Positions 541 through 30,781 of a stretch of 64,000 nt of DNA are shown in pieces (position 1 is the stretch's first letter; each line of letters starts with the position of its first letter). The stretch comes from Hysterium pulicare CBS 123377 (taxonomy: Eukaryota > Ascomycota > Dothideomycetes > Hysteriales > Hysteriaceae). The stretch spans positions 59,727 to 123,726 of the forward strand of contig AJFK01000549.1 of the NCBI GenBank assembly GCA_000467715.1, read 5' to 3'. The translations under genes were made by a program, and so were the position numbers. The notes under the pieces were generated by a model. The model did no database searches and was not told where the DNA came from. It saw nothing but the letters and a program-made list of their open reading frames with translations.

Positions 541-2459
541 CTACTTCTGCCTGATACTTACTCTACAGTAGAAGTTACTCTGCTTCACGAACCATACATT
601 CTCCGTCTTGAGTTTTTCCTCCGGGTACGCAAGCGTGATGTCGAAAGTCCGTACCAGCTGGGGAATCAGCTTCGAGATCTCCATAAGGCTTACGTTCTTT
701 CCAATACAAGTGCGCGATCCGTGGCCGAACTGGACGGAATGACTCTTAGCAAACGCCTGTTCGGGCTGACTGGTGAGAGAACTCATCGAAATACTCACGG
801 TCAGGTAATAGCGCTCCATTCTCGAGGTACGCTCTTCGCTCTCAAGCCATCTCTCTGGTAAGAAGATATCTGCGTCTTCTCCGAAAATATCCTTGTTCGC
901 GTGAGCCACCCAACTATTGATCCCTACGACCGTCTGTATGCATATATCAGCATCTGAATGGTTTTAGATAGGGACGAGTAAGCAGCCTTACACCCTCGGG
1001 GAAGTGTTTGCCACAGATCATTGCTCCGCCTGTCGGCACAACTCGTGCCAGGGGCAATCCCGTCGCTGGGTGCATTCTTAAGCCTTCCTTAATAACAGCC
1101 TGCAGATACGGCATTTTTTGAGACTCCGAGAAAGTCACAGGATTGGATACCTCGCCTTTGGCCGCCTTTTCTTCTATCTCCGCTCGAAGCTACGGATTTT
1201 TGCCAAGTCAGTCTCGTCACCGAGAATAACCAGAGATAGTGAGCGGCATACCTTCTGTAATGAACTTGTGGACGTGATCAAATTATACAAGATCCCGGCA
1301 AGAGATATCGAAGTTGTGTCAGACCCAGCACCGATATTCGTCATGCATAGTGTACGGACTTCCATCATAGTGAACTTCTCAGGTGCCTCTTGATGCATTT
1401 GTAGCGCACGTGCTAAAAAATCGTCACCGGATCCAGACTTGCTTTCAATATCAGAGGCCTCTAAGCGTTCCTGAATCTGTGCATTCGTAAAGCCTATCAT
1501 GTGGCCCATTCCACTAGCTGAAAGCTTCATAAAGAGTTTGAATGCCAAATCGTGCCACTCAGAATATATACCCACGTTGGCAGAATAAAGAAGATAATTG
1601 TGGATGCTATGGAACATACCAACGTTATCTTCGCCCTTATCCAGGAAACCGAATCTTTTGGCGACCTAAGGAATCTTAGCAGGTGGATATCGAGACAACA
1701 CGCTGATTAAACCCCTTACCGTTATCAGACCTATGACATCGAAGGCATAGCATTGCAAGTAATGTTGCATATTGATTACGGACCCCGACCGAGCCACCTC
1801 GAGAAACCTTTCGATAAGTAGAGCTGTGCATTCCGACACGCATGGCTCCATCTTCAACAGGTTGGTTGTTGAGTAGAGAGCAGCTACTTTCCGTCTATTT
1901 GCAGCATGACGTTTGGCATTACGGTCGGTGAATAGATCGACTGCTTGATGGCTACCTGGTTGGCCTGAAGCGTAATACCATGGAGCCTGTTGGTTATGAG
2001 CAAAGTTTTGTTTATGAACCATTATGGATGCAATTGTATCAGAACTCATTGATGACATACCTTGGTAAAATTCGTGCCGTGGCCATAGATCGTCCTGACC
2101 GCGTCTAGATCATCGATGCTGTATTCATTCGGTGCAATTCGTACAATCGGACCTAGAAGGGGTTAAGCCACTTTCAAGATCTGATATGAGCGTTTCGGGC
2201 TCACAACAGTACCCAACGTACCGTATTTCCCATGAAGACGTCGATTAGTTTCTTGGAAATCCCGCCGCCATACGTTTCGCAAGTACCACAGACGCGAAAA
2301 CCGTGCCGCAAATGGGCCTGGTACCGCTCCAAGTGGCGACAACAACGCGCGAATAATACATCTGAGAAGAACGAGTAGTAAGAGGCCGCAACTGCCTAGT
2401 ATGATGGCGTATAATGGCGAGACAGAGCTCAGCTTCACCCGTGTCAAAATCATTTGCAT
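541..2459 (-). CDS. Cytochrome P450 monooxygenase 1 (pisatin-demethylase-like)
   Basis: A heme-thiolate monooxygenase expected in the ER membrane, oxidising a small hydrophobic substrate with electrons from P450 reductase. Seven exons join in frame (2459-2222, 2152-2061, 1986-1720, 1665-1252, 1189-994, 923-799, 729-541) to give 506 aa, a normal length. Seen directly: an N-terminal hydrophobic anchor (about residues 15-40), a PGPF hinge, the I-helix AGSDTTS, the K-helix EGLR, and the heme loop FGHGSRTCIGKN with the cysteine ligand. Overall wording resembles the pisatin demethylase group (family knowledge), but the substrate cannot be read from sequence. All introns are GT-AG. It transcribes in the same direction as the downstream-numbered O-methyltransferase, a common oxidise-then-methylate pairing. 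The promoter side carries ATGTGGGG at 2593-2600, the element shared across the block. Confidence 0.9.
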
Positions 2460-2851
2460 ACGTGAAGTGCCAGCAGAATAATGTTAAAGTTCAAGTTTAG
2501 CCTGACATAAAACGTCAAGCTCGTATATGAATGACATCAAATAACGGAAATCACATGGGTAAACAAGACCGGAAGAGAGAGACAGATACCGGATGTGGGG
2601 TTGTGGCGTTTCCCCAAGTCACGGGGAAGCCGGCGGACATATACAAGTATGATTCTAAGGGATTGGGGCGAACGAGGTACCGGGCATACCTTAGCTGTGA
2701 CGCGGATTTCAATTGATACATAAAATCGAGGACACATTTCGGGAGATTTTCCCCCTCCTCGATTCTTTTGAGTTCCCCAAAATAAAAGTTCATAGTGTAT
2801 GCGATTTCAATATTGGTTTGAATGTCCATCTTCTGCATATATACGAGGTAT
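2460..2851. other. P450-1 promoter / O-methyltransferase 3' intergenic
   Basis: 392 nt between the P450 start and the O-methyltransferase stop. It contains ATGTGGGG (2593-2600) and an inverted pair TTCCCC...GGGGAA near 2610-2626. An open frame on the minus strand here has no recognisable domain and was not called. Confidence 0.4.
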
Positions 2852-4397
2852 TCAGAGCTTAGAAGCATTTTCACCGCTTTGAGGCAGCTCAAATTCGACA
2901 GTACCAGTGAACATCCTAAATTGGTGAAATTTAGAGAACTTCAAGCCAGCTCTCTCACCGATCTTGACTATATCAGCAAACGTCCTTTCTTTGCCGCCCA
3001 TGAGCACCATTGTGCTTAGAGACATCATGTGACATGTTGTTGGATACCCCAATTGAGCTGGTGGAAGCCGCCTTGAAGCAGGAGAATCCGCAGAAGTCGA
3101 CGGTACGATGAGGCTAGGGACAATGAGCTCGTTTACAAGGACTTTTGCTTTTGGATTCTTGCGCAAAGCAGGAACAAGCGCCGCTAGGATCTTAGCCGAT
3201 ACGTCGTCTTCGTAATCTCGTCTGGTGATTGTCAGTCTGGAGATCATATAAGGGAACGTGAAACGTACACGACGCCTCGAAGCCAGTAGACGTCTGCCAC
3301 TGTTTCTTGCGGGGTGTAGTAGTCATGAACCTGTATCTCGAGGTTCCCCTTTTCCAGATCTCTCTCGTATCCTTTAAATGTCCGAAGACGTCAGCTTAGA
3401 AGAGCATACCCCAGCTGCTACTGCATCTTACCTCTTCAATGATAGGTACCATTGGTTTGAGGTCTTGGCAAACGATCTTCAGGTCGGGATACTTCTTTTT
3501 CACTTCCAACATTACGCCACCGGGCCCACAACCAACGTCGCAGACCGTTGTTCCGTATGCATCCCAGGGTAAGTCCGTTCGCGTAGCTACTACAGTGATG
3601 CCTGAAAGCCAAAGTACGCCGATAGAAAATTTATGCAGCAAATTGGCACCTTCCGGGGTACCTAGCCATGGCAGCACGCCCATGTCCACGCCAAATTCCT
3701 CTGCAAAGGCGCCCTTACCGGGATCGATCTCGTGCATCTTTTGTGGGTTTTTCATTGTTGGTAACCAGCCAAGACCAGCCTTGTAGCCCTCTTCTGTCCT
3801 AACTTCGTCAGCTTAGACATTGACTTGGGGTATGATGGTTGTACTCGATCAACATCATCTCCGATGCTCCAGTTTCTGACCGAAGTTCATAGCTGTGTCG
3901 ATTGTTGCGGAATACATCGGGGGCCACTTCGGTGAAGATGTGGCGCTGGCATAGCATATGCATGACCGAACCTTGAGAATGTGGCACTAACGTGAGGTTC
4001 CTAACACCGTTGTATATGGCGAATGAGAAGACGAACCAAGTTTGTGCTCATCAGTCTTGCAGACGCGAGAAAGATGGGCTAGAGTTGCTTCTCCGCCATT
4101 CTCTATTATCTTATCCGCAATTTTGAAATCAGCGGCCACTCCTAGTCCCACCGTGCTGTTGTTGCTGACGCACTCTGTAACGAGCTTGATCTTTGTTGGA
4201 GTAAGCAGAGCAACGAGCTGTTCGCAGTTGGCGATCAGTCTTTGAGAAAGCTCCCAAGCTGCTCTCGGTGGAAGCTCTTCATCGTACGTTTTCCACGGTT
4301 TTGGATCGAAAAGATGGCCGGTATCGTCTCTAAGGGACGCCCTGAGAGCGCGGCCTTGGGTGGTGATGTCATCTAAGAGATTTTCTAACAGCGACAA
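2852..4397 (-). CDS. SAM-dependent O-methyltransferase (fungal OMT type)
   Basis: Transfers a methyl group from S-adenosylmethionine to a hydroxyl of a small, probably aromatic, acceptor. Five exons (4397-4037, 3971-3845, 3798-3410, 3371-3269, 3221-2852) give 449 aa, normal for fungal OMTs that have an N-terminal dimerisation/winged-helix half. Seen: the conserved EEGYKAGLGWLP stretch before the catalytic half, motif I VCDVGCGPGG (SAM-binding glycine loop), then KIVCQDL, and VADVYWLRGVV-RDYEDD at the site where the family usually has LRHVLHDWPD. The usual catalytic His of LHDW is Arg here (VVRDYED), so activity may differ. Intron 3 is only 38 nt and is the only splice that keeps frame. It is divergent from the flavin monooxygenase with a shared 370-nt promoter. 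Confidence 0.85.
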
Positions 4398-4767
4398 TTT
4401 TTAAAGGCGTGGAACGTACACGTTACGCTTCGACAAGCTGCATCAAATTGCTGGCCTATTAATTCTATCAGCTGTGAATGGAGCTGGTAGATTGGATTGC
4501 TCAACACGTGACTCCGGCATCCACTCCGGCGTTGGTATGCGGGTGCTCAATTAGGGATTACTCCGCACTCCGGACACCACAAAGTCCCGGAATCAGTGGC
4601 CACGACCCTCTCTGCCACTTACCTGGGTATGGTCAAGATTATATTGGTTGCGATGTGCTAATCACGGGGTGTAAGACGCTCCCTATGTACTCGTTTTCAT
4701 ATGCAAATAGGACACCTTATCCATATCTTCGCATTCAGAGCTCCAAGGAAAGCCAACTAATTGTAAA
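4398..4767. promoter_or_regulatory. Divergent promoter OMT/FMO with ACTCCGG repeats
   Basis: Shared upstream region of the O-methyltransferase (minus) and flavin monooxygenase (plus). ACTCCGG occurs at 4511-4517, 4523-4529 and 4567-4573, with ACTCCGC at 4560-4566 directly abutting the last copy. CACGTG lies just before the first copy. CGG-containing repeats are typical targets of Zn2Cys6 factors, and one is encoded at 6600-8858. Binding is inferred. Confidence 0.5.
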
Positions 4768-6270
4768 ATGGTGGCTAGAATCAGAGGCGTTGGTCCTGAT
4801 GGGGTAGCGCAACCGAACTCATGTGGGATAACCGTTATAGTCATTGGACTGGGATATGCAGGTGCTGTGGCAGCTGTAGAATGTCATCGCAAAGGTCATA
4901 AGGTCATCGTATTCGAGCAGGCGCCAGAAATAAAAGCCCTCGGTATGGACAGCACCACTATAGCTGCAGAAAATAGCTAATTCGAAAGGGGACGTGATCG
5001 GAATTACCGGGAATGTTGCTCAGATCATCTCGAAATGGGGTAATGGCAAAGTTCACGATCAGTTTGAACCGATCCTCTGCGACTATGGCCGCATGAACAT
5101 TCATAATACCGAAGGGGAACTGCTGTGGAGCCACACTATGCTTGGGTATTCCGCGGGCTCAGGTTACGCCGCAAACCGAGGCGACATGGCCGTCATATTC
5201 TATAACCACGTTAAGGAGTTGGGAATAGAGGTCCATCTGGGAAAGATAGTGACAGAATACTTCGAGACGCCAGATGAGGCGGGTGTTGTAGTTGATGGGA
5301 ATCGTTGGTCAGCTGACTGCGTCCTGGCGTGTGATGGGGTCCACTCGAAGGCGCGCGGTTTCATCATTGGGAAGTTCGACTCTCCGCATTCGACTGGCTA
5401 CGCGGTTTATCGTGCTTGGTTCAATGGCGAGCATGCCTTGAAAGACCCAGATTTGGCTTGGTTGCTAGATGGCAACCGAGATAAAATGGAGACATACATA
5501 GGTCCAGACGTACACTGCATTATTGGAACCGGAAGACGGTGTAAAGATATTGTGTGGACTTGCACACACAAAGACGTGTACGATATCGCTGAATCGTGGT
5601 CATTCCCAGGGAAGATAGAGGATGCGCTCAAGGTTGTTGAAGGATGGGATTAGAAGATTGCTCAGGTGATCAAGAAGACACCTGAAGACCAACTGATCGA
5701 TTATAAGCTACTATGGAGAGACCCTCTGCCGGGATGGGTTTCAAAGCACGGTAGAATGATGCTGGTTGGGGATTCGGCGCATCCATTCCTACCAACGTCG
5801 GGTCAGGGGGCAGGCCAAGCGGTGGAGGATGCGGCGACAGTTGCAATATGTCTGGAGCTAGCTGGAAAAACGCATGTGCGCCTTGCCCTACGAACTTCCG
5901 AAAAGATCAGGTGAGTCACTGTCACGGGTGGTTGGCGGGCAGAGATACTGAGTGCCACTCTAGATACGCGCGAGCGACGTTAGCCCAGAAGATTGGCGTT
6001 GAGACGCGAGATGCCTGGCATAAAACTGACTGGGAGGCTGTCAAAAAAGACCCAAAGCTTCTCGAAATGCCTCGTCCGGACTGGCTGTTCGGGCACGACC
6101 CGCAAGAATATGCGTACGAGGAATTTGACACTGCGGCGCGTGCGGTGGTGAGCGGAGGCGAGTATACTCCGCGCAACATACCGCCTCCAGGCCAGTCCCA
6201 CCGAACAGGAGATTTCAGCGGCAAGAAGATGAAGGCATGGAAAGTGGCTCATCCAGTGGCGAAGCTGTGA
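4768..6270 (+). pseudogene. Salicylate-hydroxylase-type FAD monooxygenase, interrupted by in-frame TAG
   Basis: Family role: FAD/NADH-dependent aromatic ring hydroxylation. Exons 4768-4942, 4989-5910 and 5964-6270 join perfectly (46- and 53-nt introns; the first has a GCTAAT branch site) into 467 codons. Seen: the dinucleotide-fold VIGLGYAGAVAAVE with a terminal acidic residue (VIVFEQ), NRGDM, DGVHSKAR (DG motif) and GDSAHPFLPTSGQGA (second FAD motif). The lesion is a TAG at 5651-5653, between EGWD and KIAQVIKKTP, inside the conserved core and before the second FAD motif. Removing it as an intron would need a 33-nt intron with a poor donor (GTTGTT) and no branch site. The rest shows no damage, so the stop is recent, a sequencing error, or read through. 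Function if intact: likely the aromatic hydroxylase of the block. Confidence 0.8.
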
Positions 6271-6599: not shown

Positions 6600-8858
6600 A
6601 TGTCGGATTTGGGCGCAGAACGTTTACGGTCGGGTCAGGCCTGTCTGGGTTGCAGGAAGCGTAAAAACCGATGCGATGGCGTACGTCCGCGATGCTCGGT
6701 TTGCAGCAAGAGAACTCTGGAATGCGAATACGCTCCATCCTCTCGCAAAGAGCTGATCAATGATGAGTATGCCGTCCGCCGATTGGCTAATGAAATTCGC
6801 ATCTGCTAACTCAAGTCGTGTAGATATGTTGCCGCGTTAGAAGCGAAAGTACGGAGACTTGAACGGGAGCTGCGCAGCTCTGTCGCTTGTATAAGTCCTG
6901 TGTCAAGCAACGGCAATGTGGACGGAAATCATCCTCCTCTAGTCGTCTCTGCGGACGTGGCAGAAGACTTGGAGTGCAGCAGTTCTGAAGTCCAGCCCGA
7001 GTCATTGGACGTTGTGGAATATGGTGCGTGTTATCGATACATATCCACTGCACGCCGTGACTCACTGAACTGCTTATAGACCAGGCATTGGTTCAAACAA
7101 CCCTTGCTGATTTCGGCCTTTCGCCCTGTGCCAACTCTTTAAAACGCAAGAGAACGGATTCGGACAGCCTATCCGATGTATACCGCCGCAAAACGAGAAT
7201 CGGAAGTGTCATTCGCGGTCGAGAAGAATTACATGGCGACAATTACATCCTACCGACTCGCGCATTGGCAAGCGATCTAATAGATCTATTCTTCGAGCAC
7301 GTCTTTCCGCTCTATCCGTTTGTGCATGAACCGACGTTCCGCAAGCGATTCGCCGCTACGTATGGAGATCATCTAGAAATGGATGTACCATGGCAGGCGA
7401 CGCTAAACCTCGTATTTGCCTTTGGTTGCGACTATTTAGAGCTCCCGCCCGATCAAATATTTGAGCTATCGCAGTTGTTTCACCGTCGGGGGTCTGAGTT
7501 AATACTCTCTGTTTGTTTTGACACTACCACTCTGGAAGTAATCCAAGCTCTGTTACTTCTCAGCGCCCACTTACAGAGTAATGCGCAATATAACAGGGTA
7601 TGGGTAAGCTTGGGCTGCATTGTTCGCTCAGCGCAAGGGCTCGGTTTGCATTTGGATCCGACGGCCTGGGACATTAGTACCATTGGTAAGGAGATGCGAA
7701 AGCGTCTCTGGTGGGGCATCTTCGCGCTCGACCGGTGAGTTAGACTTGAAGGCAGAGTAATTATTACTAATGCCCTCAGATTTCTGAGCCTTAAGACTGG
7801 CAGGCCGCCCGCTGTAACAGTAGAAACGCTTCCCGTAGGCCCCCCAACGACGGTCGATGATGATTGCATCACAGACACGGGAATTGTAGATGCGCAGATT
7901 CAAAAGTCCCCATCTCCAATTCATTTCTTCAATGCAACAGTCCAGTTGGCTCACATTGCTGAGACAATGCTCATATCAATGTTCAAAGAAGCGCCGTGGT
8001 GTCTACCCGGGAGAGTGGGACCGATAAAAGAATTGGATCCAATACACATAAATGTTCAGATCGGGCATGTCGTGGAGCAAGAAACGAAGCTTTCGATATG
8101 GCTTGCGAGCCTTCCAGAGCATCTCCAATTCAACACAGACAATAGTGACGAGAATATAAAGAGGCAGCAAAAAATGCTCCGGATTCGATATCTTCACATA
8201 AGGTTGATGAGTCATAGACCGAACCTGCTCTACGTCATTCAGCGTGCTCGAGATACGGCAACAGCGCTGGAGGATAGATTCCTGGTGTCAGTGTTCACTG
8301 CAAGTGTTGGGCAGTGCGTAGGCAGTGCCTGTGAAATTGTTACAATGGTCAAAGATAATACCGGACCGAAAAGAATGGGTCCTTGGTGGCATAAGGTGCA
8401 ATGTACGTATGTTTCAAATTGTTGTTGATGGAAGTATTGACAGTGAGGAAGTTCTCTATACTGCACTGAGCACCCTCTTTGCCGTTCAGTCACAAACGAG
8501 AATCTCGAAGCACATTGATGAAGACACTATGAATTCAGCTATCGACATGGCCATGGAATATCTCGATGAGTTGGGTGATGTCACTCCGATTGCTGCCAAA
8601 TGCCGAACATACTTCGCATCACGAAAGGCCCGAGCGGCAAACCAAAGCCCGCCTTCGGAGGGAGGCACATTGAATGGAATGGGGGTTCCAGCCTCTGTTC
8701 CAGCGGATACAAATACCGAGGGGGAGCCTTATCGAGACGCGATCGATGGAACTTGGCCTATGAACGATGATATTAACACAGATGTGCTGTTCAATCCAGT
8801 CTCAGACCTCTTCCTCGAACCGTTTCTCCCTGACTTATATGGGGATTTATTCAATTGA
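6600..8858 (+). CDS. Zn2Cys6 transcription factor with fungal_trans domain
   Basis: Nuclear DNA-binding regulator, likely pathway-specific. Exons 6600-6766, 6824-7023, 7080-7734, 7780-8406 and 8444-8858 give 687 aa. Seen: a perfect binuclear cluster starting at residue 15 (C-x2-C-x6-C-x6-C-x2-C-x6-C, basic RKRKNR in the first loop), then a linker and the short coiled-coil dimerisation helix YVAALEAKVRRLERELRSS created by splicing exons 1 and 2, then the middle homology region beginning near LFFEHVFPLYPFVHEP. The last intron (8407-8443) is only 37 nt, so that junction is the least certain part. It ends 45 nt from the convergent SDR stop. Nearby promoters carry CGG/CCG repeats that could be its targets. 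Some of the C-terminal annotation depends on the short intron. Confidence 0.88.
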
Positions 8859-8903: not shown

Positions 8904-9719
8904 CTAATGAAATGTAGCTCCTCCACCACAATCGAATATTTGGCCTGTGATGAATTGCGCTTCGGGGCTAGCAATAAAGTTGATCGTATGCGCAATGTCG
9001 TCAGGCCGTCCGTTACGCTTGACGCACTGTTTTTCAAGCAGCCGATCAAACAATGGGTGTGATCCGTCCGCTTTCTCATGCAGCTTCCAGACGGCTGGGG
9101 TTCGGATTAAGCCTGGCAAGATAATGTTTGCTGTCACACCTGACCCTGCCTCCACAGCGACGCTACGCGTGAAACCAACGATGGCGGCTTTCGATGTGAC
9201 GTAGGCTGAAAGGCCGGGCTCTGGTAATTGAAGCGTGCCGGAGGCTGTATTTATAAGCCGTCCGTATCCTGCCTTTTGCATATGCGGAAGAACGGCGCCT
9301 GTTAAGTAGAAGCAGGCGTTGACGTTGACATTCATGACTCGAAGAAAATCTTCAGTGGGGTGGCCAACAAATGGGATAAACGGGTACAAAGCGGCAAGTT
9401 GTACAAGCACATCGATTTTTCCAAAGGTGCCTATGACTTCTTCAACAAGCGAATTGACTTGGTTCTGCTCTCCGATGTTGCAGACTCGGTATGCCGCCCT
9501 TCCACCACTCGCCTCGATTTCAGACAGCACCTTTAGCAGTTTATCTTCCTGGATGTCCACCATTACTACTGTGGCTCCTTGTGATGCAAACAGCTTGGAA
9601 GTGACTTCTCCTATGCCCTGTGCGGCGCCAGTAATGGCAACCACTTGACCCTCAAACTTGTCCGGATAGACCTTTATGGGCGGAATTTTCGACCCGCTCT
9701 CGACTTCCCAACTCTCCAT
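8904..9719 (-). CDS. Short-chain dehydrogenase/reductase (SDR)
   Basis: Single exon, 271 aa, the classical SDR length. NAD(P)-dependent oxidoreduction of an alcohol or carbonyl. Seen: the cofactor loop TGAAQGIG near residue 30 with the acidic residue VDIQ at the end of beta-2 (favouring NAD(H)), NVNVNACF, the catalytic Ser in NTASGTL, YVTSK (Tyr-x3-Lys), PG-IRTP, and a glycine-rich C-terminus GQIFDCGGGATFH. It is convergent with the Zn2Cys6 gene and divergent from P450-2, with which it shares a 422-nt promoter. Its place in a pathway with P450-2 (oxidising a hydroxylated product) is inference. Confidence 0.92.
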   Translation of the reverse strand: MESWEVESGSKIPPIKVYPDKFEGQVVAITGAAQGIGEVTSKLFASQGATVVMVDIQEDKLLKVLSEIEASGGRAAYRVCNIGEQNQVNSLVEEVIGTFGKIDVLVQLAALYPFIPFVGHPTEDFLRVMNVNVNACFYLTGAVLPHMQKAGYGRLINTASGTLQLPEPGLSAYVTSKAAIVGFTRSVAVEAGSGVTANIILPGLIRTPAVWKLHEKADGSHPLFDRLLEKQCVKRNGRPDDIAHTINFIASPEAQFITGQIFDCGGGATFH

Positions 9720-12675: not shown

Positions 12676-12856
12676 GATTGCCGGGCTGGTAGGAAGCAGG
12701 CGAATGAAGATAGGGTTTCAACGGAGTATAGAGAGGAGGTCTCTGAAATGAAATGAGTGGAGGCTAGTAGCTGGTTGGGAGATATCGTTCAGTCGTTGGA
12801 GGTTAATGCGCGATACTTTACATTAATGAAATCAAGATCTCTGGCTTTTTCAAGGA

Positions 12857-20838: not shown

Positions 20839-21881
20839 ATGAGCGGCTCTTTCGATTTCAAGACCCTGGGCTTCATTGGCCTGGGGGCGATGGGAAAACC
20901 AATGGTTGTTCATTTGGCAAACAAACTCCCACCAGAATCCCGAATCTATGTTTTCGATGTCGTCTCTTCGGTGGTGGACGAGCTATGTTCTCAATTTCCG
21001 GATCGAGTTCTGAAGGGTTCCAGCGCGAAGGATGTCGCTGAACATACAGTAAGTGCTCCTCACTTTGCTCAACGGCTACTATCAATGATTCAGAGCGAGA
21101 CAAATCTGACTTCTGCAAGGAAACTATAATGACCATGGTACCAGAAGGAGCGCACGTGCGATCTGTATACCTCGATCCCCAAAGCGGCGTTTGCAGCAGC
21201 GACATTTCCGGGAAACTCCTCATTGATTGCTCAACGATAGACACTGCAACGAGTCTCGCGGTGAAGGATCATATTGCGCAAAACTTCCCAACCGCATCAT
21301 TTTACGATGCGCCTGTTAGTGGAGGTGTTGTGGGTGCCGTGAAAGGAACGATTGCTTTCTTTCTCGGCTGTGCCGAGTCGGATCCAAACGTTCTGCGGCT
21401 TACACGCTTGCTCAGTATGATGGGAAAGCAAATCATACCTTGTGGTGGACCATCGTTAGGGCTTGCATCGAAGTTGTCTAATAACTATCTGTCAGGAATC
21501 ATCGCCATTGCTTGCTCGGAAGCGATGGATATGGGCATGCGATCTGGACTGGATCCCAGGGTTCTTGCAAAAGTTTACGCCGCCGGGACAGCACAAAACA
21601 CTATATGCGATCGATTCTGCCCAGTACCAGGAGTGTACCCAGAAGCGCCTTCTTCTAAGGGGTACAAAGAAGGCTTCAAGGTTCAGCTGATGAGGAAAGA
21701 CTTTGCACTAGCGGTAGACATGGCGGAGAGAGTTGGCTCTCAGAACGTGCTTGGAGATGTTGGTTTGCAAACATATGATGGAGCTAGTAAAGATCCTAGA
21801 TGTCGGGATTTGGACTCCCGAGTTGTATATCGGTACCTTGGCGGAAAGGAGGACTGGCAATCTAACCAGAACGGATCCTGA
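20839..21881 (+). CDS. 3-hydroxyisobutyrate-dehydrogenase-like oxidoreductase 2
   Basis: Second beta-hydroxyacid dehydrogenase family member. Exons 20839-21048 and 21120-21881 give 323 aa. Seen: the cofactor loop GFIGLGAMGKPM, TMVPEGAHV after splicing, DAPVSGGVVGAVKGTI, catalytic Lys in LASKLSNNYLSG, and the C-terminal helices. It has the same architecture as the 14557-15675 gene but clearly diverged, and only one intron position is comparable. The ATG at 20839 (MSGSFDFKTLGFIG) was chosen because the cofactor loop then starts at about residue 11, as in the family. Confidence 0.92.
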
Positions 21882-22189: not shown

Positions 22190-22636
22190 ATGTCTACCGA
22201 TCCGAAGTTCGATGACCTTCATAAACAGCTCTTCGAAGAAGGGCTTAAGATGCGCCGAAGTGTCGTAGGAAACGAATATGTCGATCGAGCATTGGCTAAC
22301 GGTTCAACCGAATTCTCTCGCGCCGGCCAAGAGCTTGTCACCGAATGGTGCTGGGGTTACGCATGGACTCGACCAGGCCTGGATAAGAAGCAGAGGTCGT
22401 TACTGAACATCGGCATGCTGATGGCCTTGAATCGAGCGCCAGAACTAGCTGTGCACGTCCGAGGGGCAAGGAATAACGGTCTTTCCGAGCTCGAAATTCG
22501 CGAGGCCATCCTACACGCAACGACATACTGCGGAGTCCCAGCGGGGGTGGACGCCATGAAGACGGCGGAGAAAGTACTGAACGAGATGGCCGAGAAGGGA
22601 GAGATGCCCAGAGAGATGGCAAGCAAGACCACATGA
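22190..22636 (+). CDS. 4-carboxymuconolactone decarboxylase-like protein
   Basis: Single exon, 148 aa, the normal length of a one-domain CMD protein. In the beta-ketoadipate pathway this family decarboxylates 4-carboxymuconolactone; many members act on other ring-cleavage products. Seen: [20 protein letters not shown] at the N-terminus (a hallmark of true CMD proteins), [73 protein letters not shown]. This match is closer to genuine PcaC-type enzymes than the two-domain protein at 18349. Confidence 0.92.
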
Positions 22637-23078: not shown

Positions 23079-25774
23079 ATGGAGTCAAGCACTCTGACGG
23101 ACCAGGCTCCGTCGACAGGGAAAAAGCAAAAACGATTCCAATGCAAGCACTGTCAACGGCTATTCGCCCGTCTTGAACACCTACAGCGACATGAAAGGAT
23201 TCATACTCAGGAGAAACCGTTCCATTGCGCTTTGTGCAACTACTCCTTCACCCGTAGGTAATGAAACACCCAGCCCTCATTCTATAGGCCACTGAACTTT
23301 CGCTAAATCTGATAGCGATCTACTCGTTCGGCACGAGAGGTTAACTCATCATAAAGATAACGGCCAAAGGATTCATTCTAGTCCTAGTGATGCGCAAGAA
23401 TCTGCAGACTCGAGACCGATCAAACGAGTGCGCCACAGCATAGATGAGGGACCTGGAGGTCCTGCTGTATCCGCTGTATTGTTATCACCCACAGCAAACT
23501 TCAATGCTGATTTCCGGAGTTCTTCGGTTCCCAACCCTCCCAGCTCCACAGTTTCCTTGAGTATTCCACAGAATGATGAGTTCTCGCTTGCCGCACTCTC
23601 CATGGCAGCGGAATATCAAGCTTTGCAAGGGACTATGACCAACGGTGGAAGCCAACATCACGAGCAGCCAATGGGGATTGTAGTAAATCAAGATGAACAT
23701 ATGGTACCCACAGCTGCCACTGTACCCTCGGCTCCAGATCAACTCCAGGGACCTAGTTTTGGCGACACGCTTGATAGCCTTGCTGTCTTCCTTGATAACG
23801 AGCCACTGTCTTCATATCATTTTCCATCTTTTATCAATACTGAACAACCTATGCCATTCTTCTCCCCCGAGTCTCTAAGCTACAACAATGATTTCCTTCC
23901 GCACTCAGACACGCCAGGGGCGGCAACGGTCGGTCCAGGCCACTGCCATGGCCAATCGCATGCCGAAGACCCTAACTCCTTTTCTCGTTTCGGATCAAGG
24001 CTTCCATCTCTCCAACCTGAAGAATCTCCATCTTTCCAGGCTTCTGAGCGCCGTCCCATGTCTGACGTCTCCTACGACGATAGACAAAGGATCATGGCGC
24101 AGCTGAATGACTTCGCTCCTGTACTTCCAACAGATTTCCGGCTTCCCTCGAAGTTGGCATTATCACGATACATTACTGCATACATCAATGGCTTTCATGA
24201 ACATATGCCCTTTTTGCATCTTCCAACAATGTCAATTGAGAGCTGTTCAATTGAGCTCATTCTCGCTATAGCTGCGGTTGGAGCTCAATACACATTCGAA
24301 GGAGAGAAGGGGGTAGAGCTCTTCAACGCAAGCCGAGCGGTAGCGACTTATCGTATACGGAAGAGAGATGCTAGGCTGGTTGAGTTTCACCGACGAGCAG
24401 AATCAGAAGCTTCGTCCGCTTCTCGGGATATCGAAGGATCTTCGACCACTAGAAGTCCCCCAAGAACTTGCTCAACATCCGGTCCCCTCGGATTACCATC
24501 GGAGGCTGCTTCCCTCCAAGTGGACCTTATGCAGACTGCGCAAGCTTTATTTTTGCTCATGGCCCTGTCAACATGGGCTAAGCATAAAGAGATTCTCCGA
24601 GAAGCACTTGCGATTCAAAGTATATTGGCCACATTGATAAGGGATGATGGTCTCTCGCACGACCCCGTCCATGAAGGCATATCTTGGGAGGACTGGATCA
24701 AATTCGAGACAACAAAGAGGACAAAGTTCCTCGTTTTTGCTTTCTTTAATCTGCACTGCATTGTCTACAACATTCCTCCACTTATTCTCACATCCGAAAT
24801 CAAGTTGACGATGCCTTGTAGTGCAGCAGAGTTTAAGGCGCCCAGTGCCAATGCTTGGAGAGAGGTAAGACGAAGAGGAGCACCCGAAATCGGATTCCAG
24901 GAAGCTTTACAGCGGCTGTTTTCAAGAGGCGGTCGAGATATCGCCGAGTTCAATTCTAGCCTGGGCAATTATGTCTTAATCCACGCACTAATACAACAAA
25001 TTTTCTTTGTGCGTCAGGTCGCCAAATGTCGCTTCGACGGCTCAGGAGACTTGACCGCAGAGGATCACTCGAGGCTAGAACATGCGTTAAGGAATTGGCA
25101 GCTTGGATGGAAGAGTAATCCTGAAAGTTCCTTGGATCCAATGGATCCAAACGGGCCTGTTGCATTCAATTCAACTGCTTTGCTTCGCCTGGCTTGGATT
25201 CGGCTCAATGTTGACACGGCTGGCCGCGCATTGGACACAAGAGATCCGGTACAAATTGCGAACGCGATTCGCGAGGCACCCGCCATCAAACGCAACCAGA
25301 AATTGATCCGACCGGCATTGCATGCTGCTCACGCATTGAGCATCCCTGTCAAGATTGGTGAGTCGTTAATTCGGTTTGGCGAGTGCAAAAGTAAATAGCT
25401 CACATCTAGTTGCAGGTATCCGTTTGGTAGCTAGGACGCAAGGCTTTGTATGGTCCATTCAACACTCGCTCTGTACACTTGAATGTGCATATCTTCTGAG
25501 TAAATGGCTCGAAGCTCTTTCAGTACCGAATCCTGAACCTCCGATAACGGAAGATGAGCGAAGAATCATCACCATTGTAAAGACTTTGATGGATGAGACT
25601 GAGTTTGCAGTACCGCCTGAGGTTCCCTTGGACTCCCCCGCATATACCAAATACCTTTCAGCCGGTGTGCTCAGAGTCTGGGCTACTATCTTCAAAGGGG
25701 GCCAAACCTGGGCGATTGTGGATGTCATTGGCAGTTCACTGAATCTGTATGCGGATATGCTCGAAGCTGGATGA
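23079..25774 (+). CDS. Two-finger C2H2 transcription factor with fungal_trans domain
   Basis: Nuclear regulator. Exons 23079-23257, 23316-25357 and 25416-25774 give 859 aa. Finger 1 (residues about 21-41) reads CKHCQRLFARLEHLQRHERIH. Finger 2 is completed by splicing: FTR|SDLLVRHERLTHH. The linker HTQEKP is close to the canonical TGEKP. Recognition residues are R-E-H-R (finger 1) and R-D-L-R (finger 2); CreA/Mig1 has R-E-H-R and R-D-E-R (family knowledge), predicting a G-N-G-G-G-G-like site. A Ser/Pro-rich middle is followed by a fungal_trans domain from about residue 240 (LSRYITAYINGFHEHMPFLH). It sits centrally in the second metabolic block whose promoters are rich in GYGGRG, so it is the best candidate pathway regulator. 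Confidence 0.92.
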
Positions 25775-25848
25775 TACTCATTTTGGTTAAAATAGTGCAA
25801 TTTATTTCACCGGTTGAAACACCACGCGCGCCTCGGCCTACGGCCTGC

Positions 25849-26985
25849 CTAGGGTTTTTCGAGAGACATATCGATCACCAGCTTTCCTCCATCTCCCTTG
25901 TGGTATTCTTCTACGAGTTCGTTCAACCCAGACAATGGAAACGATCTTGAAATTGCTCGGACCTGATTTTGGGCCGCAAATTCCAGCATCTCTCTCAGAT
26001 TCTTATTGCTACCTACCAGACTGCCGATGATGGAGATATCGCGGAAGACAACATCGCGAGCGGAAATGTGGAATCCTTGATCCGGAAAGGACACCACGAC
26101 ACATTTACCGTGTGTCTTCAGCAACAACATTCCATAATCGAAAGCCTTCTGGCTCTCCGGCAGGATGATCACAGCATCAACACCCATCTCGCCTTTGTCT
26201 TTCTTGTCATCTTCGGAACCAAGTTGTTGAACAATATCCTCCGCTTTCTCGGTTTTTGCATCCACAATCCTAGCTCCGGTATTCAAGCGGCGTGCCAGCT
26301 GCAGAGGACCTTCCGCAACATCAACGCCCAGTACACGCAAACCCATTTTCGTGGCGAATTGCAGACCAAGATGGCCAAGACCACCGCCACAGCCCATTAT
26401 TCCCACTCGCTGACCCGGCTGCAGTTGACACCTCTTGATAGCTGCATATATGGTGATGCCTGCACACATAAGCGGGGCTGTCTCCACCGCGGTCATGGAG
26501 TCTGGTATTGGAGCCAATTGCCTAGCATCAACCACGGCATACTCGGAAAACCCACCATTATGGCTGATACCATTGTTTTCGGCGTGTGCACAGTATACCG
26601 AGTAACCTGACGGATCAGAGCTGACGGGGTCGTTCGATCCTTTGCATTCGAAACATGTCCCGCATGGATGGAAGGCGCGTCCTGGTACTCCAACTCTGTC
26701 ACCAACTTTGAAGGCGCTGGCTGGTGAACTTGGTGATTGATGATGCGATACGATGGTCCCAGCAAATTCGTGGCAACCGATGTGCGGGAAAGATTTGGGT
26801 AAGCCGGGCATCTGTCCATCGGCGAGGACTGCATCCGTGTGGCAGTACGATGCAGCATCAACTTTGATCAGCAAGTCGTGAGGAGATGTGAGCCCCGGTA
26901 ATGAAACTGAACGAAGAGCATAAGGTTTCTTGAAAGCATCTAAGAATTGAGCACGCATGGTTTTGGGTATTTGGTGGATTGCCAT
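25849..26985 (-). CDS. Zinc-dependent alcohol dehydrogenase (MDR family)
   Basis: Single exon, 378 aa from the ATG giving MAIHQIPKTMRAQ. Oxidises a primary alcohol to an aldehyde or the reverse, with NAD(P) and zinc. Seen: catalytic Cys-His (SYCHTDAVLADG), GCHEFAGTIVS, GDRVGVPG, structural-zinc Cys set (HPCGTCFECKG ... VYCAHA), Rossmann loop GIMGCGGGLGHLGLQ, then VVSFPDQGFHISARDVVFRDISIIGSLVGS. Another 59 codons upstream (to 27162) are open in frame but look like promoter rather than protein. It is divergent from lactonase 2. It plausibly feeds the aldehyde dehydrogenase at 28944. Confidence 0.92.
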   Translation of the reverse strand: MAIHQIPKTMRAQFLDAFKKPYALRSVSLPGLTSPHDLLIKVDAASYCHTDAVLADGQMPGLPKSFPHIGCHEFAGTIVSHHQSPSSPASAFKVGDRVGVPGRAFHPCGTCFECKGSNDPVSSDPSGYSVYCAHAENNGISHNGGFSEYAVVDARQLAPIPDSMTAVETAPLMCAGITIYAAIKRCQLQPGQRVGIMGCGGGLGHLGLQFATKMGLRVLGVDVAEGPLQLARRLNTGARIVDAKTEKAEDIVQQLGSEDDKKDKGEMGVDAVIILPESQKAFDYGMLLLKTHGKCVVVSFPDQGFHISARDVVFRDISIIGSLVGSNKNLREMLEFAAQNQVRAISRSFPLSGLNELVEEYHKGDGGKLVIDMSLEKP

Positions 26986-27297: not shown

Positions 27298-28308
27298 ATG
27301 TCCACTGATGAAACCATCATTCTCCCATCATCATCGCCAAACCAAGCCTACGTGACCATCTCTGCCCTCGAAGCCGGGCATCTCACTCTCCCCGAGTACC
27401 TCTTCGTGACGGATGCAGACCCCAACAAACGCACCACCGTACCATCCCTCTCATTCCTAATACAACACCCATCACAACCTCCCTCCCGAAGCTCAAAAAC
27501 AACTAATCTTGTCTTCGACCTTGGCCTCAAGCGCGATTTCAAAGGCTACAGAGACGCACAACAACACCACATTTCGCAGCGCCAACCAACAACCATCTCT
27601 CCCGACGCGCGCGAGAGCCTCCTTAAGGGCGGCCTAGATCCCAAAGCCATAGACTACATCATCCTTAGCCACGTGCACTGGGACCATGTCGGCACATCCT
27701 CGGACTTCCCGACCGCTGAATTTGTAGTTGGTAGCGGAACTTTGCATCTCCTCGCAAACGGAGGCGGGCCCCTATATCCCGCTGAAATCTTCACAGCAGA
27801 CGAACTGCCTCAATCGCAGACGAAAGAACTACCCCCTGTGCCCTCTAGGCCTAGCGACGGGACTCGTGCGGCGAAACCCGAGTCTCAGACTAAGCACAAG
27901 TGGAAAGAGATGGCGCCTTTCCCGGCTGTGGTTGATTTCTTCGGGGATGGCAGTTTGTTCGTCATAGATAGTCCAGGACACTTACCCGGGCACGTGAATC
28001 TGCTCGCGAGGACAGGGCCCAGGAAATGGGTTTATCTAGGCGGGGACTGTTGCCATGATGTAAGGATCTTGAAGGGGGAGAAGGGGATTGCCATGTATGA
28101 CGATGGGAGGGGTGGGCTGAGAAGCGTGCACGTTGATACTGGGGAAGCGAAAGATACGATTGGACGGATTGGGAGGCTGTTGAGGAAGGGGAGGGTGGTT
28201 GAGAGTGAGGGTAGTGGGGAGGTTGAGGCTGAGGTGGAGGTTGTTGTTGCGCATGATAAGGGGTGGAGAGAGTCGAATGCGGAGAGGTTTTGGCCGGGGC
28301 GGTTGTGA
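27298..28308 (+). CDS. Metallo-beta-lactamase-fold hydrolase 2 (lactonase-like)
   Basis: Intronless, 336 aa. Same order of motifs as the 19415-20444 protein: ISALEAGHLTLPEY, TVPSLSFLIQH, LVFDLGLKRDF, LSHVHWDHVG (HxHxDH zinc motif), DSPGHLPGHVNLLAR, VYLGGDCCHDVRILKGEKG, and a C-terminal AHDKGW. It is longer because of an inserted Pro/Ser/Lys segment (about residues 170-200) and a Glu/Val-rich stretch near the end. The two genes are paralogues; one either gained or lost the intron in the metal motif. The likely role is ring opening of a lactone, with substrate unknown. In Fusarium a related-fold enzyme opens benzoxazolinone (family knowledge, not evidence for this gene). Confidence 0.9.
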   Translation: MSTDETIILPSSSPNQAYVTISALEAGHLTLPEYLFVTDADPNKRTTVPSLSFLIQHPSQPPSRSSKTTNLVFDLGLKRDFKGYRDAQQHHISQRQPTTISPDARESLLKGGLDPKAIDYIILSHVHWDHVGTSSDFPTAEFVVGSGTLHLLANGGGPLYPAEIFTADELPQSQTKELPPVPSRPSDGTRAAKPESQTKHKWKEMAPFPAVVDFFGDGSLFVIDSPGHLPGHVNLLARTGPRKWVYLGGDCCHDVRILKGEKGIAMYDDGRGGLRSVHVDTGEAKDTIGRIGRLLRKGRVVESEGSGEVEAEVEVVVAHDKGWRESNAERFWPGRL

Positions 28309-28943
28309 AGTGTAGAATTAGCCGTGTGTATAGCAGAAAAGAGTATAGATTTGATGTTTTGAGAATGATCATTCAGCGTGTCAAGACCAAACAAGAAAGA
28401 AAACATGTTCCAGACTATCCGCTTCGTCAAGCGCTATCATTTACTACGGGAAATGTTGGCAGACAACGCTTACAGGAAGATGGTTACTTACTGCAGTGAG
28501 CCGACAAGAAGCAGAGTCTCAAGCCAGCTTCTCTTCTGAGGGATTCTACTTCGACTATGAAAGAGAGATGAAAAGATATTCATCATTCTTTCAGGTGCCG
28601 TCGCACTGTGCAAGCTTCGACTGAAGCAGAAGATACCGCTACCATGACGATGCATCTGCACTCCAAGACCCATGAGCCGCTAGTGGCCGAAAATAGTTAG
28701 CAAAAGCGGGGCCAGCTCCCTGTCAAACCGAGGCATGGCAGGTCACGAAAGTCGAGCCGTGAATGTTGCGAGTGCTCAGAGAAAGACCTTGCTCCATCGT
28801 TCTTGTTACTATTTGTCCTTTCTACTAATACCCACAGCTCCTCGCCAGCCTCATATACGACTGACATCTCCCAGCTCATTCGTCCTTCCGTCGGGAGGAC
28901 CATCAAGAACTCTGAAACTCCAGAGCTTCCCAGAACTTCAATC
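28309..28943. other. Intergenic, ALDH promoter side
   Basis: 635 nt without a supported gene. A GCGGGG occurs near 28706. Long minus-strand frames at the left end are shadows of the lactonase gene. Confidence 0.4.
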
Positions 28944-30781
28944 ATGGCGGGAATACCTCCTTTCGAGCATACACCCATCGATGAGATTCCTGAAGTCGTC
29001 AATGGTTTACGCAAAACATTCCTCTCGCATAAGACGAGGCCATTGGAATACCGTCTTCTTCAGTTAAGAAAGCTGTATTGGGGGTAAGCTATTAAGAAAT
29101 CCTCACTCTACGTTTCGATTGCAAACCCTTTTCTCTTCTGGTCGACGTTGCTGACATTTCCGTGCCTTTCAGATTGAAAGACAATACAGAACTCATCCTA
29201 GAAGCATGCAAGAAAGATATCGGAAAGTCTAGCTTTGAGACCTACCTGACCGAAGTCGGATGGTGCATGAACGATATTGTATTTATGTCCCAAAACCTCG
29301 CCCGCTTTGCGAAAGATGAGAAGCCAGATGATATCGCCCTTACAAACAAGTTCTTTGGGCCTAGGATTCGAAAGGACCCATTGGGTACTGCCCTCATCAT
29401 TGGGTATGACTATAGCTGCCCTTTGTTCAATCGAGATTCATGCTGATCTGAGTTTCTAAATTCTAGAGCCTATAACTTTCCGATTCAGCTGTCCCTCGGT
29501 CCTCTCATCGGTGCCATATCCGCCGGCTGCACTGCCATTCTTAAGCCCTCCGAATCAGCGCCTCATGCGGCCGCCGTTATGCAAAAGATTATTGCAGAAT
29601 CCCTCGACCCGTCCTCCTACACCGTCATACAGGGCGCTATTCCAGAGACATCTTGCCTGCTAGATCAGAAATGGGACAAGATCTTTTATACGGGATCAGC
29701 GAGCGTTGGAACAATCATCGCGAAGAAGGCCGCAGAGACTTTGACACCGGTGACATTGGAGCTTGGAGGCAAAAATCCAGCGATTATCACGAAACATGCG
29801 GATGCAAAACTTGCTTCGAGGAGATTACTCTGGGCGAAGGTGCTGAATGCTGGACAGGTTTGCGTGTCACAGAATTACACCCTTATTGATAAGGAGATCG
29901 TGCCGGCATTTATTCAAGGCTTGGAAGCTGCGTTGCAAGAATTCTACCCTCAGGGCGCACGCAGTTCGCCAGACTATGGTAGAATTATCAATCAGAAGCA
30001 GTTTGCTAGGTTGAAAAAGATGCTGGACGAGAGCAAGGGAAAGATCCTGCTGGGCGGCACAATGGACGAGCAAGACCTATTCCTTGAGCCAACTGTGGTG
30101 CAAATCGATAGCTTGGAGGACAGCCTAATCATGGATGAGAGTTTCGGCCCTCTAATCCCCATTCTCCCTGTCACGGATTTGGATGAGGCAATCAAGATCG
30201 CGAACGAAATACACGATACACCTCTAGGAATCTATCCTTTTGGCAACAAAGCAGAGATGGAGAAAGGTATCATACCATTTCCCCAAATCCCATCTACATC
30301 CCGACGTTATTAACACCTCATAGTCCTTTCCCAAACCCGCTCCGGCGGTGCCTCCCTAAATGACGGCTTTTTCCACGCCTCGATCCCCACTCTCTCTTTT
30401 GGCGGCGTCGGCTCCTCCGGCCAGGGTGCCTATCGTGGCCGCGCTTCCTTCGATGTCTTTACGCACCGTCGCTCTGTCACCACGACGCCTGCATGGATCG
30501 AGGGTATGCTAGATATTAGATATCCACCTTACACGGCGAAGAAGCAGAAGAAGTTCATGGGTATGAATGAATTGAAGCCGGATTTTGATCGTGAGGGGAG
30601 GATTATAGGGTGGAGTGCTTGGTTGAAAGGTTTTCTTGGAGGCAAAGGAGGATTGGGACTTGCGGCTGTGATTAGTAAGTGACTTTGATCGTAGATTTGC
30701 GAGAGTGTGATATGGTTGGCTGACTTGTTGGTAGTTGCGGTTGGGGTGAGGCTGTATCTCCAGCGTAGGGCCAAGCTTTGA
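28944..30781 (+). CDS. Fatty-aldehyde-type aldehyde dehydrogenase with C-terminal membrane anchor
   Basis: Oxidises aldehydes to acids with NAD(P) (ALDH3/FALDH-like). Exons 28944-29083, 29173-29403, 29467-30266, 30324-30674 and 30735-30781 give 522 aa. Seen: YNFPIQLSLGPLIGAISAGCTAILKPSE, YTGSASVGTIIAKKAA, the general base Glu in TLELGGKNPAI, the catalytic Cys in LNAGQVCVSQNY, ESFGPLIPI, and GGVGSSGQGAYRG. The last two exons add a hydrophobic stretch (GLGLAAVIIAVGVRLYL) followed by QRRAKL, as in ER- or peroxisome-anchored fatty aldehyde dehydrogenases. It likely takes the product of the neighbouring alcohol dehydrogenase. Confidence 0.93.

What the first reader, a model, noticed from the sequence alone, without database searches (positions are those of the whole stretch)
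541..30781. 30-kb oxidative gene cluster with permease and two regulators but no backbone synthase
Seen: two P450s, an O-methyltransferase, a salicylate-hydroxylase-type monooxygenase, SDR, two HIBADH-like enzymes, two CMD-fold proteins, two lactonase-like hydrolases, ADH, ALDH, an ACS permease and two transcription factors, nearly without unrelated genes. From family knowledge, CMD, ring hydroxylase and lactonase belong to aromatic ring degradation. Inference: a catabolic or detoxification cluster for an imported aromatic or lactone compound, possibly plant-derived, with the ADH/ALDH/HIBADH enzymes handling the side chain or ring-fission acid. I do not know of a described cluster with this gene set, but I could not search.
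Basis: partly seen in the sequence, partly recalled or inferred. Interest (0 to 1): 0.75.

Follow-up and report, generated by a model that had tools for sequence, protein, structure and literature searches.

The report
Fungal lactone-breakdown gene cluster
A stretch of a fungal chromosome carries ten neighbouring genes that probably import and break down a lactone or hydroxy acid; two of them are also neighbours in other fungi, and the same kinds of enzymes sit together in many bacteria, but the compound they act on is not known.

Summary
The gene list is real, but the "30-kb cluster" is best read as two neighbours. Right block (14.56-30.68 kb): two HIBADH-like dehydrogenases, anion permease, tandem CMD protein (CMD1), PcaC-like CMD2, two MBL hydrolases, ADH, ALDH, regulator. 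Left block (0.54-11.89 kb): two P450s, O-methyltransferase, FAD monooxygenase with an in-frame stop, SDR, Zn2Cys6 regulator; 2.7 kb with apparent gene relics lies between.

Right block: in 9 of 10 named fungi present in both homolog lists, MBL2 and CMD1 orthologs share a contig (locus tags 4-6 apart in the three that show them). Around bacterial CMD1 relatives (about 50% identical; 80 of 198 loci read) lie MBL in 74, HIBADH-like in 72, CMD2 in 57, ALDH in 29. Against: only CMD1 is a demonstrated cross-kingdom ortholog; the fungal MBLs as queries found none of the 80 at 1e-8; ADH matched 4 and the permease 1.

Best reading: a catabolic module for an imported lactone or hydroxy acid, substrate unknown. 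No ring-cleaving enzyme is in the right block, though its ALDH is nearest a benzaldehyde-dehydrogenase profile (below cut-off). New variant of a known kind.

The parts
14557..15675 (-). HIB1: beta-hydroxyacid (HIBADH-like) dehydrogenase, 3 exons; GLGVMG, DAPVSGG and K..NN motifs present
   Evidence: (TIGR01692 218.7 bits, cut-off 291.6)
16285..17992 (+). MFS permease (ACS type by its only solved relative, the D-galactonate transporter, 38.6 bits), 6 exons
18349..19131 (-). CMD1: tandem two-domain CMD protein, no intron, no second copy found in the genome; solved relative 2q0t (named only as putative). My queries used 18352-19128, without the ATG
19415..20444 (-). MBL1: metallo-beta-lactamase-fold hydrolase, lactonase-like; HVHWDH, PGHLPGH, GGD, AHD motifs present; 2 exons
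20839..21881 (+). HIB2: beta-hydroxyacid (HIBADH-like) dehydrogenase, 2 exons
22190..22636 (+). CMD2: PcaC-like single-domain CMD protein, no intron
23079..25774 (+). TF2: Fungal_trans regulator with C2H2 fingers (finger scores below Pfam cut-off)
25849..26985 (-). ADH: zinc alcohol dehydrogenase, no intron; 312-bp divergent promoter with MBL2
27298..28308 (+). MBL2: metallo-beta-lactamase-fold hydrolase, no intron; AlphaFold2 model mean pLDDT 91.3
28944..30682 (+). ALDH: aldehyde dehydrogenase, 4 exons; best profile benzaldehyde dehydrogenase MdlD, below cut-off
541..2459 (-). left block: P450a, 6 exons
2852..4443 (-). left block: O-methyltransferase (Methyltransf_2; 5' end uncertain)
4768..6270 (+). 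left block: FAD monooxygenase with in-frame TAG at 5651-5653
6600..8858 (+). left block: TF1, Zn2Cys6 + Fungal_trans regulator (last intron uncertain)
8904..9719 (-). left block: SDR, no intron
10118..11885 (+). left block: P450b, 4 exons; 81% identical to a Coniochaeta ligniaria P450
12500..13523 (+). apparent relics between the blocks: MFS-transporter C-terminus by eye (about 12.50-12.67 kb) and CBM_4_9-like fragment (12.83-13.52 kb)

Best explanation
The 14.56-30.68 kb block is a catabolic gene cluster. The permease brings in an organic anion or lactone; MBL1/MBL2 open a lactone ring to a hydroxy acid; ADH and ALDH oxidise a primary alcohol to the acid; HIB1/HIB2 oxidise a beta-hydroxy acid; CMD1 and CMD2 decarboxylate or rearrange the resulting beta-oxo or unsaturated-lactone acid so that it can enter central metabolism; TF2 controls it. 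Shown: the genes, the presence of the family motifs looked for, MBL2-CMD1 linkage in other fungi, and recurrence of several of the same enzyme classes around CMD1 in bacteria. Inferred: order of steps, reaction of each enzyme, control by TF2. Unknown: the substrate. The left block is a separate oxidative tailoring or detoxification block that adjoins it.
For: Fungi: 9 of 10 named species present in both top-120 homolog lists have MBL2 and CMD1 orthologs on a contig of the same length; locus tags differ by 5 (Kalmusia), 6 (Mollisiaceae sp.) and 4 (Zalaria), against 6 gene steps in the window. The tenth, Parastagonospora nodorum, has different longest contigs in multi-strain clusters and is undecided. 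Bacteria: 80 loci read of 198 found: HIB 72, SDR 60-65 by query, CMD2 57, ALDH 28-29; with bacterial queries MBL 74, GntR 57, MFS 27. 56 of 80 have HIB+MBL+CMD2 besides CMD1; 66 of 80 have two or more HIB; 23 of 80 have two HIB plus MBL, CMD2 and ALDH, 15 of them also the MFS. Background for a HIB-family place in such a stretch is about 0.024. Plasmids Sodalis pHS1 and Acidiphilium pACRY02 carry annotated versions, checked by tblastn. Own genome: CMD1 single match, both full MBL matches here, 2 of 4 CMD genes here. Motifs present. The 25 fungal CMD1 rows chosen form one group, 100/99 support, unrooted.
Against: Only CMD1 is a clear cross-kingdom ortholog. The fungal MBL1/MBL2 found 0 of 80 bacterial loci at 1e-8, ADH 4, ACS 1, TF2 0, so the bacterial MFS is not the same transporter type and the MBL likeness is at fold/core level. 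Two MBLs occur in only 8 of 80 loci. Bacterial cluster HIBs match another fungal HIB (C391) best in 101 of 116 cases, the window's in 1; CMD2 is split 24 window to 17 C171 of 41; one bacterial MBL matched C433 (28.9 bits) slightly better than MBL2 (26.3). The likeness may be convergent. HIB, CMD2, ADH, ALDH and ACS linkage in other fungi was not tested. No promoter k-mer shared beyond shuffles. No expression data. Two more distant CMD1 relatives (28% and 38%) sit in other contexts.
Confidence: 0.65

Rival explanations
1. One 30-kb catabolic cluster: the left-block oxygenases attack an aromatic or polycyclic compound and the right block degrades the side chain or ring-fission lactone.
For: Adjacency; P450b's named relatives include 3-hydroxyphenylacetate 6-hydroxylase, patI and yanC at 40-46%; the monooxygenase piece is near a MAK1-like enzyme; the ALDH's best profile is benzaldehyde dehydrogenase MdlD, below cut-off; bacterial loci often contain an SDR, and with one bacterial SDR as query the window SDR ranked second of 79 own-genome places.
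Against: Over 69 bacterial SDRs the window SDR was best only twice among 17 compared; 2.7 kb with apparent relics separates the blocks; P450b orthologs (67% or more, 12 rows, 3 named species: Coniochaeta ligniaria, Exophiala viscosa, E. xenobiotica) are in none of the named species of the MBL2/CMD1 top-120 lists; the monooxygenase is interrupted; P450b and OMT matched 0 of 80 bacterial CMD1 loci (P450a, the monooxygenase and TF1 were not tried there).
Confidence: 0.2
2. The left block is the remains of a secondary-metabolite cluster that lost or never had its backbone gene; the right block is unrelated to it. (This is about the left block and can hold together with the best explanation.)
For: OMT closest to gedA (73 bits) with lepI further off (43), monooxygenase closest to CtdE, P450s, Zn2Cys6 regulator, stop codon in the monooxygenase, apparent relics beside it.
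Against: By eye no backbone gene in 40 kb upstream or in the window frames printed; equally fits a detoxification block.
Confidence: 0.4
3. The MBL enzymes are quorum-quenching AHL lactonases and the rest of the right block uses the released acid.
For: AttM/AHL-lactonase is the best NCBIfam match of MBL2, and N-acylhomoserine lactonases its best solved relatives.
Against: 53.7 bits against a cut-off of 390; AHL breakdown needs no CMD or HIBADH-like enzymes (general knowledge).
Confidence: 0.06
4. Accessory branch of the protocatechuate/beta-ketoadipate pathway.
For: CMD2 is PcaC-like (TIGR02425 134 bits); an A. niger PcaC orthologue rises about 240-fold on 3,4-dihydroxybenzoate (PMC10406623, passages).
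Against: That A. niger deletion did not impair growth; CMD2 is below the PcaC cut-off; no ring-cleaving dioxygenase or cycloisomerase domain among the proteins scanned; HIB has no role in that pathway (general knowledge).
Confidence: 0.08

Closest known systems
Bacterial CMD1 loci (Sodalis praecaptivus pHS1; Acidiphilium cryptum pACRY02; chromosomes of actinobacteria, pseudomonads and others); no published name found in ten text searches
   Same: Tandem CMD (about 50% identical), PcaC-like CMD, HIBADH-like dehydrogenases, an MBL-fold lactonase-like protein, an MFS, sometimes ALDH; pHS1 has 2 MBL, 2 HIB, 1 ALDH, 1 CMD2, 1 MFS, 1 CMD1
   Different: Bacteria often add cupin, GntR, SDR, sometimes NIPSNAP; the fungus adds ADH and a zinc-finger regulator; HIB and SDR are not best matches, MBL and MFS are alike only distantly; two MBLs in only 8 of 80 loci
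Fusarium FDB1/FDB2 benzoxazolinone clusters (PMC4726666 and PMC10512309, passages)
   Same: Fungal degradative clusters with an MBL-fold hydrolase (HxHxDHxG), transporters and regulators
   Different: FDB has NAT1, amidases and dienelactone hydrolases; none seen here. No CMD or HIBADH-named gene in the passages and tables I saw; supplementary tables not seen
Fungal degradative gene clusters defined by 13 core genes (described in PMC10735191, passages; the original Gluck-Thaler and Slot 2018 is not held)
   Same: Clustered catabolic genes with transporter and regulator
   Different: By Pfam the right block has none of the 13 core genes; the left block has only a loosely salicylate-hydroxylase-type monooxygenase
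Itaconate/2-hydroxyparaconate locus of Pseudomonas (PMC9875883, passages)
   Same: Lactone opening by a dedicated lactonase in an operon that also has an MmgE/PrpD protein, which 9 of 80 bacterial CMD1 loci also have
   Different: Its lactonase is a 127-aa Rdo protein; no CMD or HIBADH-like gene in the passages read

Membership tests
Bacterial CMD1 locus | Ortholog of the tandem CMD protein | tested here: met
   45-56% identity over most of the length; 2q0t by profile, E 1e-104; fungal group 100/99
Bacterial CMD1 locus | PcaC-like CMD2 nearby | tested here: met
   CMD2 lies 3.1 kb from CMD1; 57 of 80 bacterial loci have it; best-match test split 24/17 with the C171 copy
Bacterial CMD1 locus | Orthologous HIBADH-like dehydrogenase | tested here: not met
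   Class present twice, but bacterial HIBs match fungal C391 best in 101 of 116
Bacterial CMD1 locus | MBL lactonase of the same subfamily | tested here: inconclusive
   Fungal MBLs find 0 of 80 loci at 1e-8; 22-34% over 53-186 residues; C433 28.9 vs MBL2 26.3 bits for one bacterial query
Bacterial CMD1 locus | Same transporter type | tested here: not met
   ACS permease matches 1 of 80 loci
Bacterial CMD1 locus | Orthologous SDR | tested here: not met
   Window SDR best for 2 of 69, among 17 own-genome SDRs compared
FDB benzoxazolinone cluster | MBL-fold hydrolase with HxHxDH motif | tested here: met
   MBL1 and MBL2 motif HVHWDH; likeness to Fusarium Mbl1 itself not tested
FDB benzoxazolinone cluster | N-malonyltransferase NAT1, amidase, dienelactone hydrolase | tested here: not met
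   None among Pfam hits of the 19 proteins or pieces scanned
Fungal degradative cluster with one of 13 core genes | A core gene in the right block | tested here: not met
   Judged by Pfam of the ten genes, not by the BLAST rule of PMC10735191
3-hydroxyisobutyrate dehydrogenase (TIGR01692) | Score over curated cut-off | tested here: not met
   218.7 and 223.8 bits, cut-off 291.6
4-carboxymuconolactone decarboxylase (TIGR02425) | Score over curated cut-off | tested here: not met
   CMD2 134 bits, cut-off 155.7
AHL lactonase AttM (NF045700) | Score over curated cut-off | tested here: not met
   MBL2 53.7 bits, cut-off 390
Benzaldehyde dehydrogenase MdlD (NF045701) | Score over curated cut-off | tested here: not met
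   ALDH 338.7 bits, cut-off 550, but clearly its best profile
Salicylate hydroxylase | Closest solved relative is a salicylate hydroxylase | tested here: not met
   CtdE 231, MAK1-like 181, salicylate monooxygenase about 52 bits (N-terminal piece only)
Any catabolic pathway | Growth on, or induction by, the substrate | not testable with these tools
   No expression or growth data

The most novel reading that the evidence does not exclude
An unnamed catabolic module for one widespread lactone or branched hydroxy acid exists in both kingdoms: bacteria carry it as an operon-like locus (also on plasmids) and Pezizomycotina carry it as a gene cluster built around a tandem CMD protein that fungi gained once, with the other enzyme classes recruited from fungal relatives. 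The tandem CMD (2q0t) family would then be the diagnostic enzyme of the pathway.
Probability: 0.4. Interest if true: 0.65.

Novelty: new variant of a known kind. Interest (0 to 1): 0.5.

Why it matters
CMD-family proteins, HIBADH-like dehydrogenases and MBL 'lactonases' are usually named by family without a tested substrate. A gene set that recurs together in many bacteria, and in part in fungi, gives a direct way to find what they do: one substrate screen in a tractable bacterium would assign several families at once, including the solved structure 2q0t that is named only as putative, and would name the compound that these ascomycetes can feed on or neutralise.

Tried and rejected
Tried without result: shared promoter k-mers in seven right-block promoters (no better than shuffles); literature search for the gene set (no listed title or abstract start describes a cluster of MBL + HIBADH-like + two CMD genes; one search returned 0 papers); SDR as a bridge between the blocks (looked promising, second of 79; with 69 bacterial SDRs against the window SDR and 16 others did not support it); a repeat element as the border (short matches at one other contig only). 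Considered and rejected or rated low: quorum quenching as the main role, protocatechuate branch, FDB cluster, single 30-kb unit. Not tested: linkage of HIB, CMD2, ADH, ALDH and ACS in other fungi (all 3 protein searches used); species of the genome (CMD1 groups beside seven rows whose named species I recall as Pleosporales, weak evidence). The source names '3-hydroxyisobutyrate dehydrogenase' for an Alternaria MBL (P0097) and 'Beta-lactamase-like' for a Neofusicoccum CMD (P0150) hint at adjacency but prove nothing; P0097 as printed is an MBL.

Full report
What was checked. The window is bases 59,727-123,726 of contig C409 of a 37.2-Mb fungal assembly. The Zn2Cys6 regulator, not obvious in the six-frame list, has its zinc cluster just after 6.60 kb.

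Corrections to the observation. The FAD monooxygenase at 4.77-6.27 kb carries one in-frame TAG (5651-5653) in a stretch that looks coding on both sides. It is either a young pseudogene or a sequence error. Its N-terminal piece is closest to CtdE and a MAK1-like enzyme, not to salicylate hydroxylases. Between 11.9 and 14.5 kb I found no cluster gene, only what looks by eye like the last part of a sugar-type transporter and a CBM_4_9-like fragment below Pfam's cut-off. Upstream of the window lie a PepX/S15-type hydrolase, a regulator with a Fungal_trans domain (C2H2 fingers by eye) and a further FAD monooxygenase, so the oxidative genes go on beyond the window edge.

Two blocks. The right block runs from HIB1 (14,557) to ALDH (30,682). 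Three of its gene pairs are divergent (HIB1/ACS 609 bp apart, MBL1/HIB2 394 bp, ADH/MBL2 312 bp; coordinates). CMD1, CMD2, ADH and MBL2 have no intron in my models. MBL1 and MBL2 are 45% identical, HIB1 and HIB2 34%. The genome search found four CMD-family (PF02627) genes, two of them here; CMD1 has no other match; MBL1 and MBL2 are the only full-length matches to MBL2, with two weak partial matches elsewhere. Rough chance estimates are about 8e-4 for the CMD pair and 4e-4 for the MBL pair.

Linkage in other fungi. The homolog searches with MBL2 (1021 proteins, 120 listed) and CMD1 (2498 proteins, 120 listed) give contig lengths. Ten named species occur in both lists by exact name. In nine the two proteins come from a contig of the same length: Lojkania, Kalmusia, Mollisiaceae sp., Zalaria, Acephala, Aaosphaeria, Decorospora, Glonium and Alternaria panax; two unnamed contig lengths (79,904 and 24,621) also occur in both lists. 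The Glonium contig is only 48.5 kb. Parastagonospora nodorum is undecided. Locus tags differ by 5, 6 and 4 in Kalmusia, Mollisiaceae sp. and Zalaria, against 6 gene steps in the window. These species span Dothideomycetes (Zalaria, Lojkania) and Leotiomycetes (Acephala). Only the MBL2-CMD1 pair was tested; the other eight genes were not.

The bacterial counterpart. CMD1 has bacterial relatives at about 50% identity. A scan of prokaryote genomes with the alignment found 198 loci and returned the best 80, 22 of them shorter than 20 kb. Fungal queries at 1e-8 matched: HIB 72, SDR 65, CMD2 57, ALDH 28, ADH 4, ACS 1, and MBL1, MBL2, TF2, OMT and P450b none of 80. Bacterial queries taken from three of the loci matched: MBL 74, HIB 72, SDR 60, CMD2 57, GntR 57, ALDH 29 (either of two queries), one kind of MFS 27, NIPSNAP 14, MmgE/PrpD 9 of 80; a cupin family recurs in 28 loci (Pfam Cupin_2). 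56 of 80 have HIB, MBL and CMD2 besides CMD1; 66 have at least two HIB; only 8 have two MBL; 23 have two HIB plus MBL, CMD2 and ALDH, and 15 of these also the MFS. The genes are mostly on one strand and within 6 kb of CMD1; the commonest order, MBL-SDR-CMD2-HIB-GntR-CMD1, is found in 7 loci. As a background, ten of these genomes hold 73 HIB-family places in 62.2 Mb, cluster copies included, i.e. 0.024 per locus; no such background was made for MBL, SDR or CMD2. Annotated plasmids show it plainly: Acidiphilium cryptum pACRY02 has GntR, CMD2, HIB, MFS, MBL, SDR, HIB, cupin, CMD1, NIPSNAP, with IS genes not far on either side; Sodalis praecaptivus pHS1 has MBL, MBL, NIPSNAP, HIB, ALDH, CMD2, MFS, HIB, cupin, CMD1, GntR. 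The HIB genes are annotated there as NAD(P)-dependent oxidoreductases; tblastn confirms the kind. Two more distant relatives (28% and 38%) sit in other surroundings.

How far the likeness goes. I tested whether the fungal partners are the orthologs of the bacterial ones. Apart from CMD1 this was not borne out. Bacterial HIBs prefer another fungal HIB gene, C391, in 101 of 116 cases among seven own-genome places; the window SDR is best for 2 of 69 bacterial SDRs among 17 own-genome SDRs compared; CMD2 wins 24 of 41 against its C171 copy; the MBLs are alike only over parts of the chain. The fungal CMD1 rows I chose (25) form one well-supported group apart from 76 bacterial rows (100/99; unrooted), so a single gain by fungi is possible but not shown. 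The honest statement is: several of the same enzyme classes, one shared ortholog.

Mechanism. From the families: permease (only solved relative the D-galactonate transporter), lactone opening by MBL1/2 (metal-ligand motifs present; confident model), oxidation by ADH and ALDH, oxidation of a beta-hydroxy acid by HIB1/2 (cofactor, substrate and lysine motifs present), and decarboxylation or rearrangement by CMD1/2. The meaning of these motifs is recalled family knowledge. HIB1/2, CMD2 and MBL2 fall below the curated cut-offs of HIBADH, PcaC and AHL lactonase, so the textbook substrates of these names should not be assumed. The ALDH's best profile is benzaldehyde dehydrogenase MdlD, also below cut-off, which leaves an aromatic aldehyde possible. 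The order of steps and the substrate are inference.

The left block. P450b is 81% identical to a Coniochaeta ligniaria protein and 72-74% to Exophiala proteins; all other named rows of the 120 listed are at 48% or less (one named source row at 77% bears no species). Such a patchy spread fits a block that moves or is often lost. Named relatives include 3-hydroxyphenylacetate 6-hydroxylase, patI and yanC (40-46%). The block could be an aromatic detoxification block or the remains of a biosynthetic one.

Known work. FDB1/FDB2 (PMC4726666, PMC10512309; passages) are the nearest studied fungal clusters with an MBL hydrolase that I know of; their other named genes differ except for general classes such as transporters, regulators and a salicylate-hydroxylase-named gene in FDB2. 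[quoted passage not shown] Fungal degradative clusters are defined by 13 core genes (PMC10735191, passages), none of which I see by Pfam in the right block. In A. niger a PcaC orthologue rises about 240-fold on 3,4-dihydroxybenzoate without a growth defect on deletion (PMC10406623, passages). Pseudomonas opens the lactone 2-hydroxyparaconate with a different kind of protein (PMC9875883, passages). No title or abstract start listed by ten searches describes this gene set; apart from the six papers named here I saw only listings, and the library omits most subscription journals.

Verdict. A real catabolic module, conserved at least in part, with an unexplained substrate, plus an oxidative neighbour for which I found no tie. 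Interest 0.5.

Noticed in passing
window 5651-5653: In-frame TAG in an otherwise coding FAD monooxygenase of the left block: young pseudogene or sequence error.
   Followed up: partly
window 12500-13523: What looks like the C-terminal end of a sugar-type MFS transporter and a weak CBM_4_9-like fragment, apparently relics.
   Followed up: partly
window 13880-13985: Palindromic repeat rich in ggtag/ctacc words, with short matches at only one other contig, C488.
   Followed up: partly
L009:3800-9685 (C409, just upstream of the window): FAD monooxygenase, regulator with Fungal_trans domain and PepX/S15-type hydrolase next to the left block; the oxidative stretch is larger than the window shows.
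   Followed up: partly
window 57589-60637 (-): Three adjacent frames that look by eye like a NACHT-type NTPase with ankyrin repeats, an NLR-like gene; not scanned.
   Followed up: no
L128 (Acidiphilium cryptum pACRY02): The bacterial version sits on a plasmid with IS genes not far on either side, so it may move as a unit.
   Followed up: no
P0241 and P0242-P0243: P450b is 81% identical to Coniochaeta ligniaria and 72-74% to Exophiala P450s while all other named rows listed are 48% or less: a patchy spread across classes.
   Followed up: no
G000:C391:6467-6871: Another HIBADH-like gene of this genome is the best match of 101 of 116 bacterial cluster HIBs.
   Followed up: no
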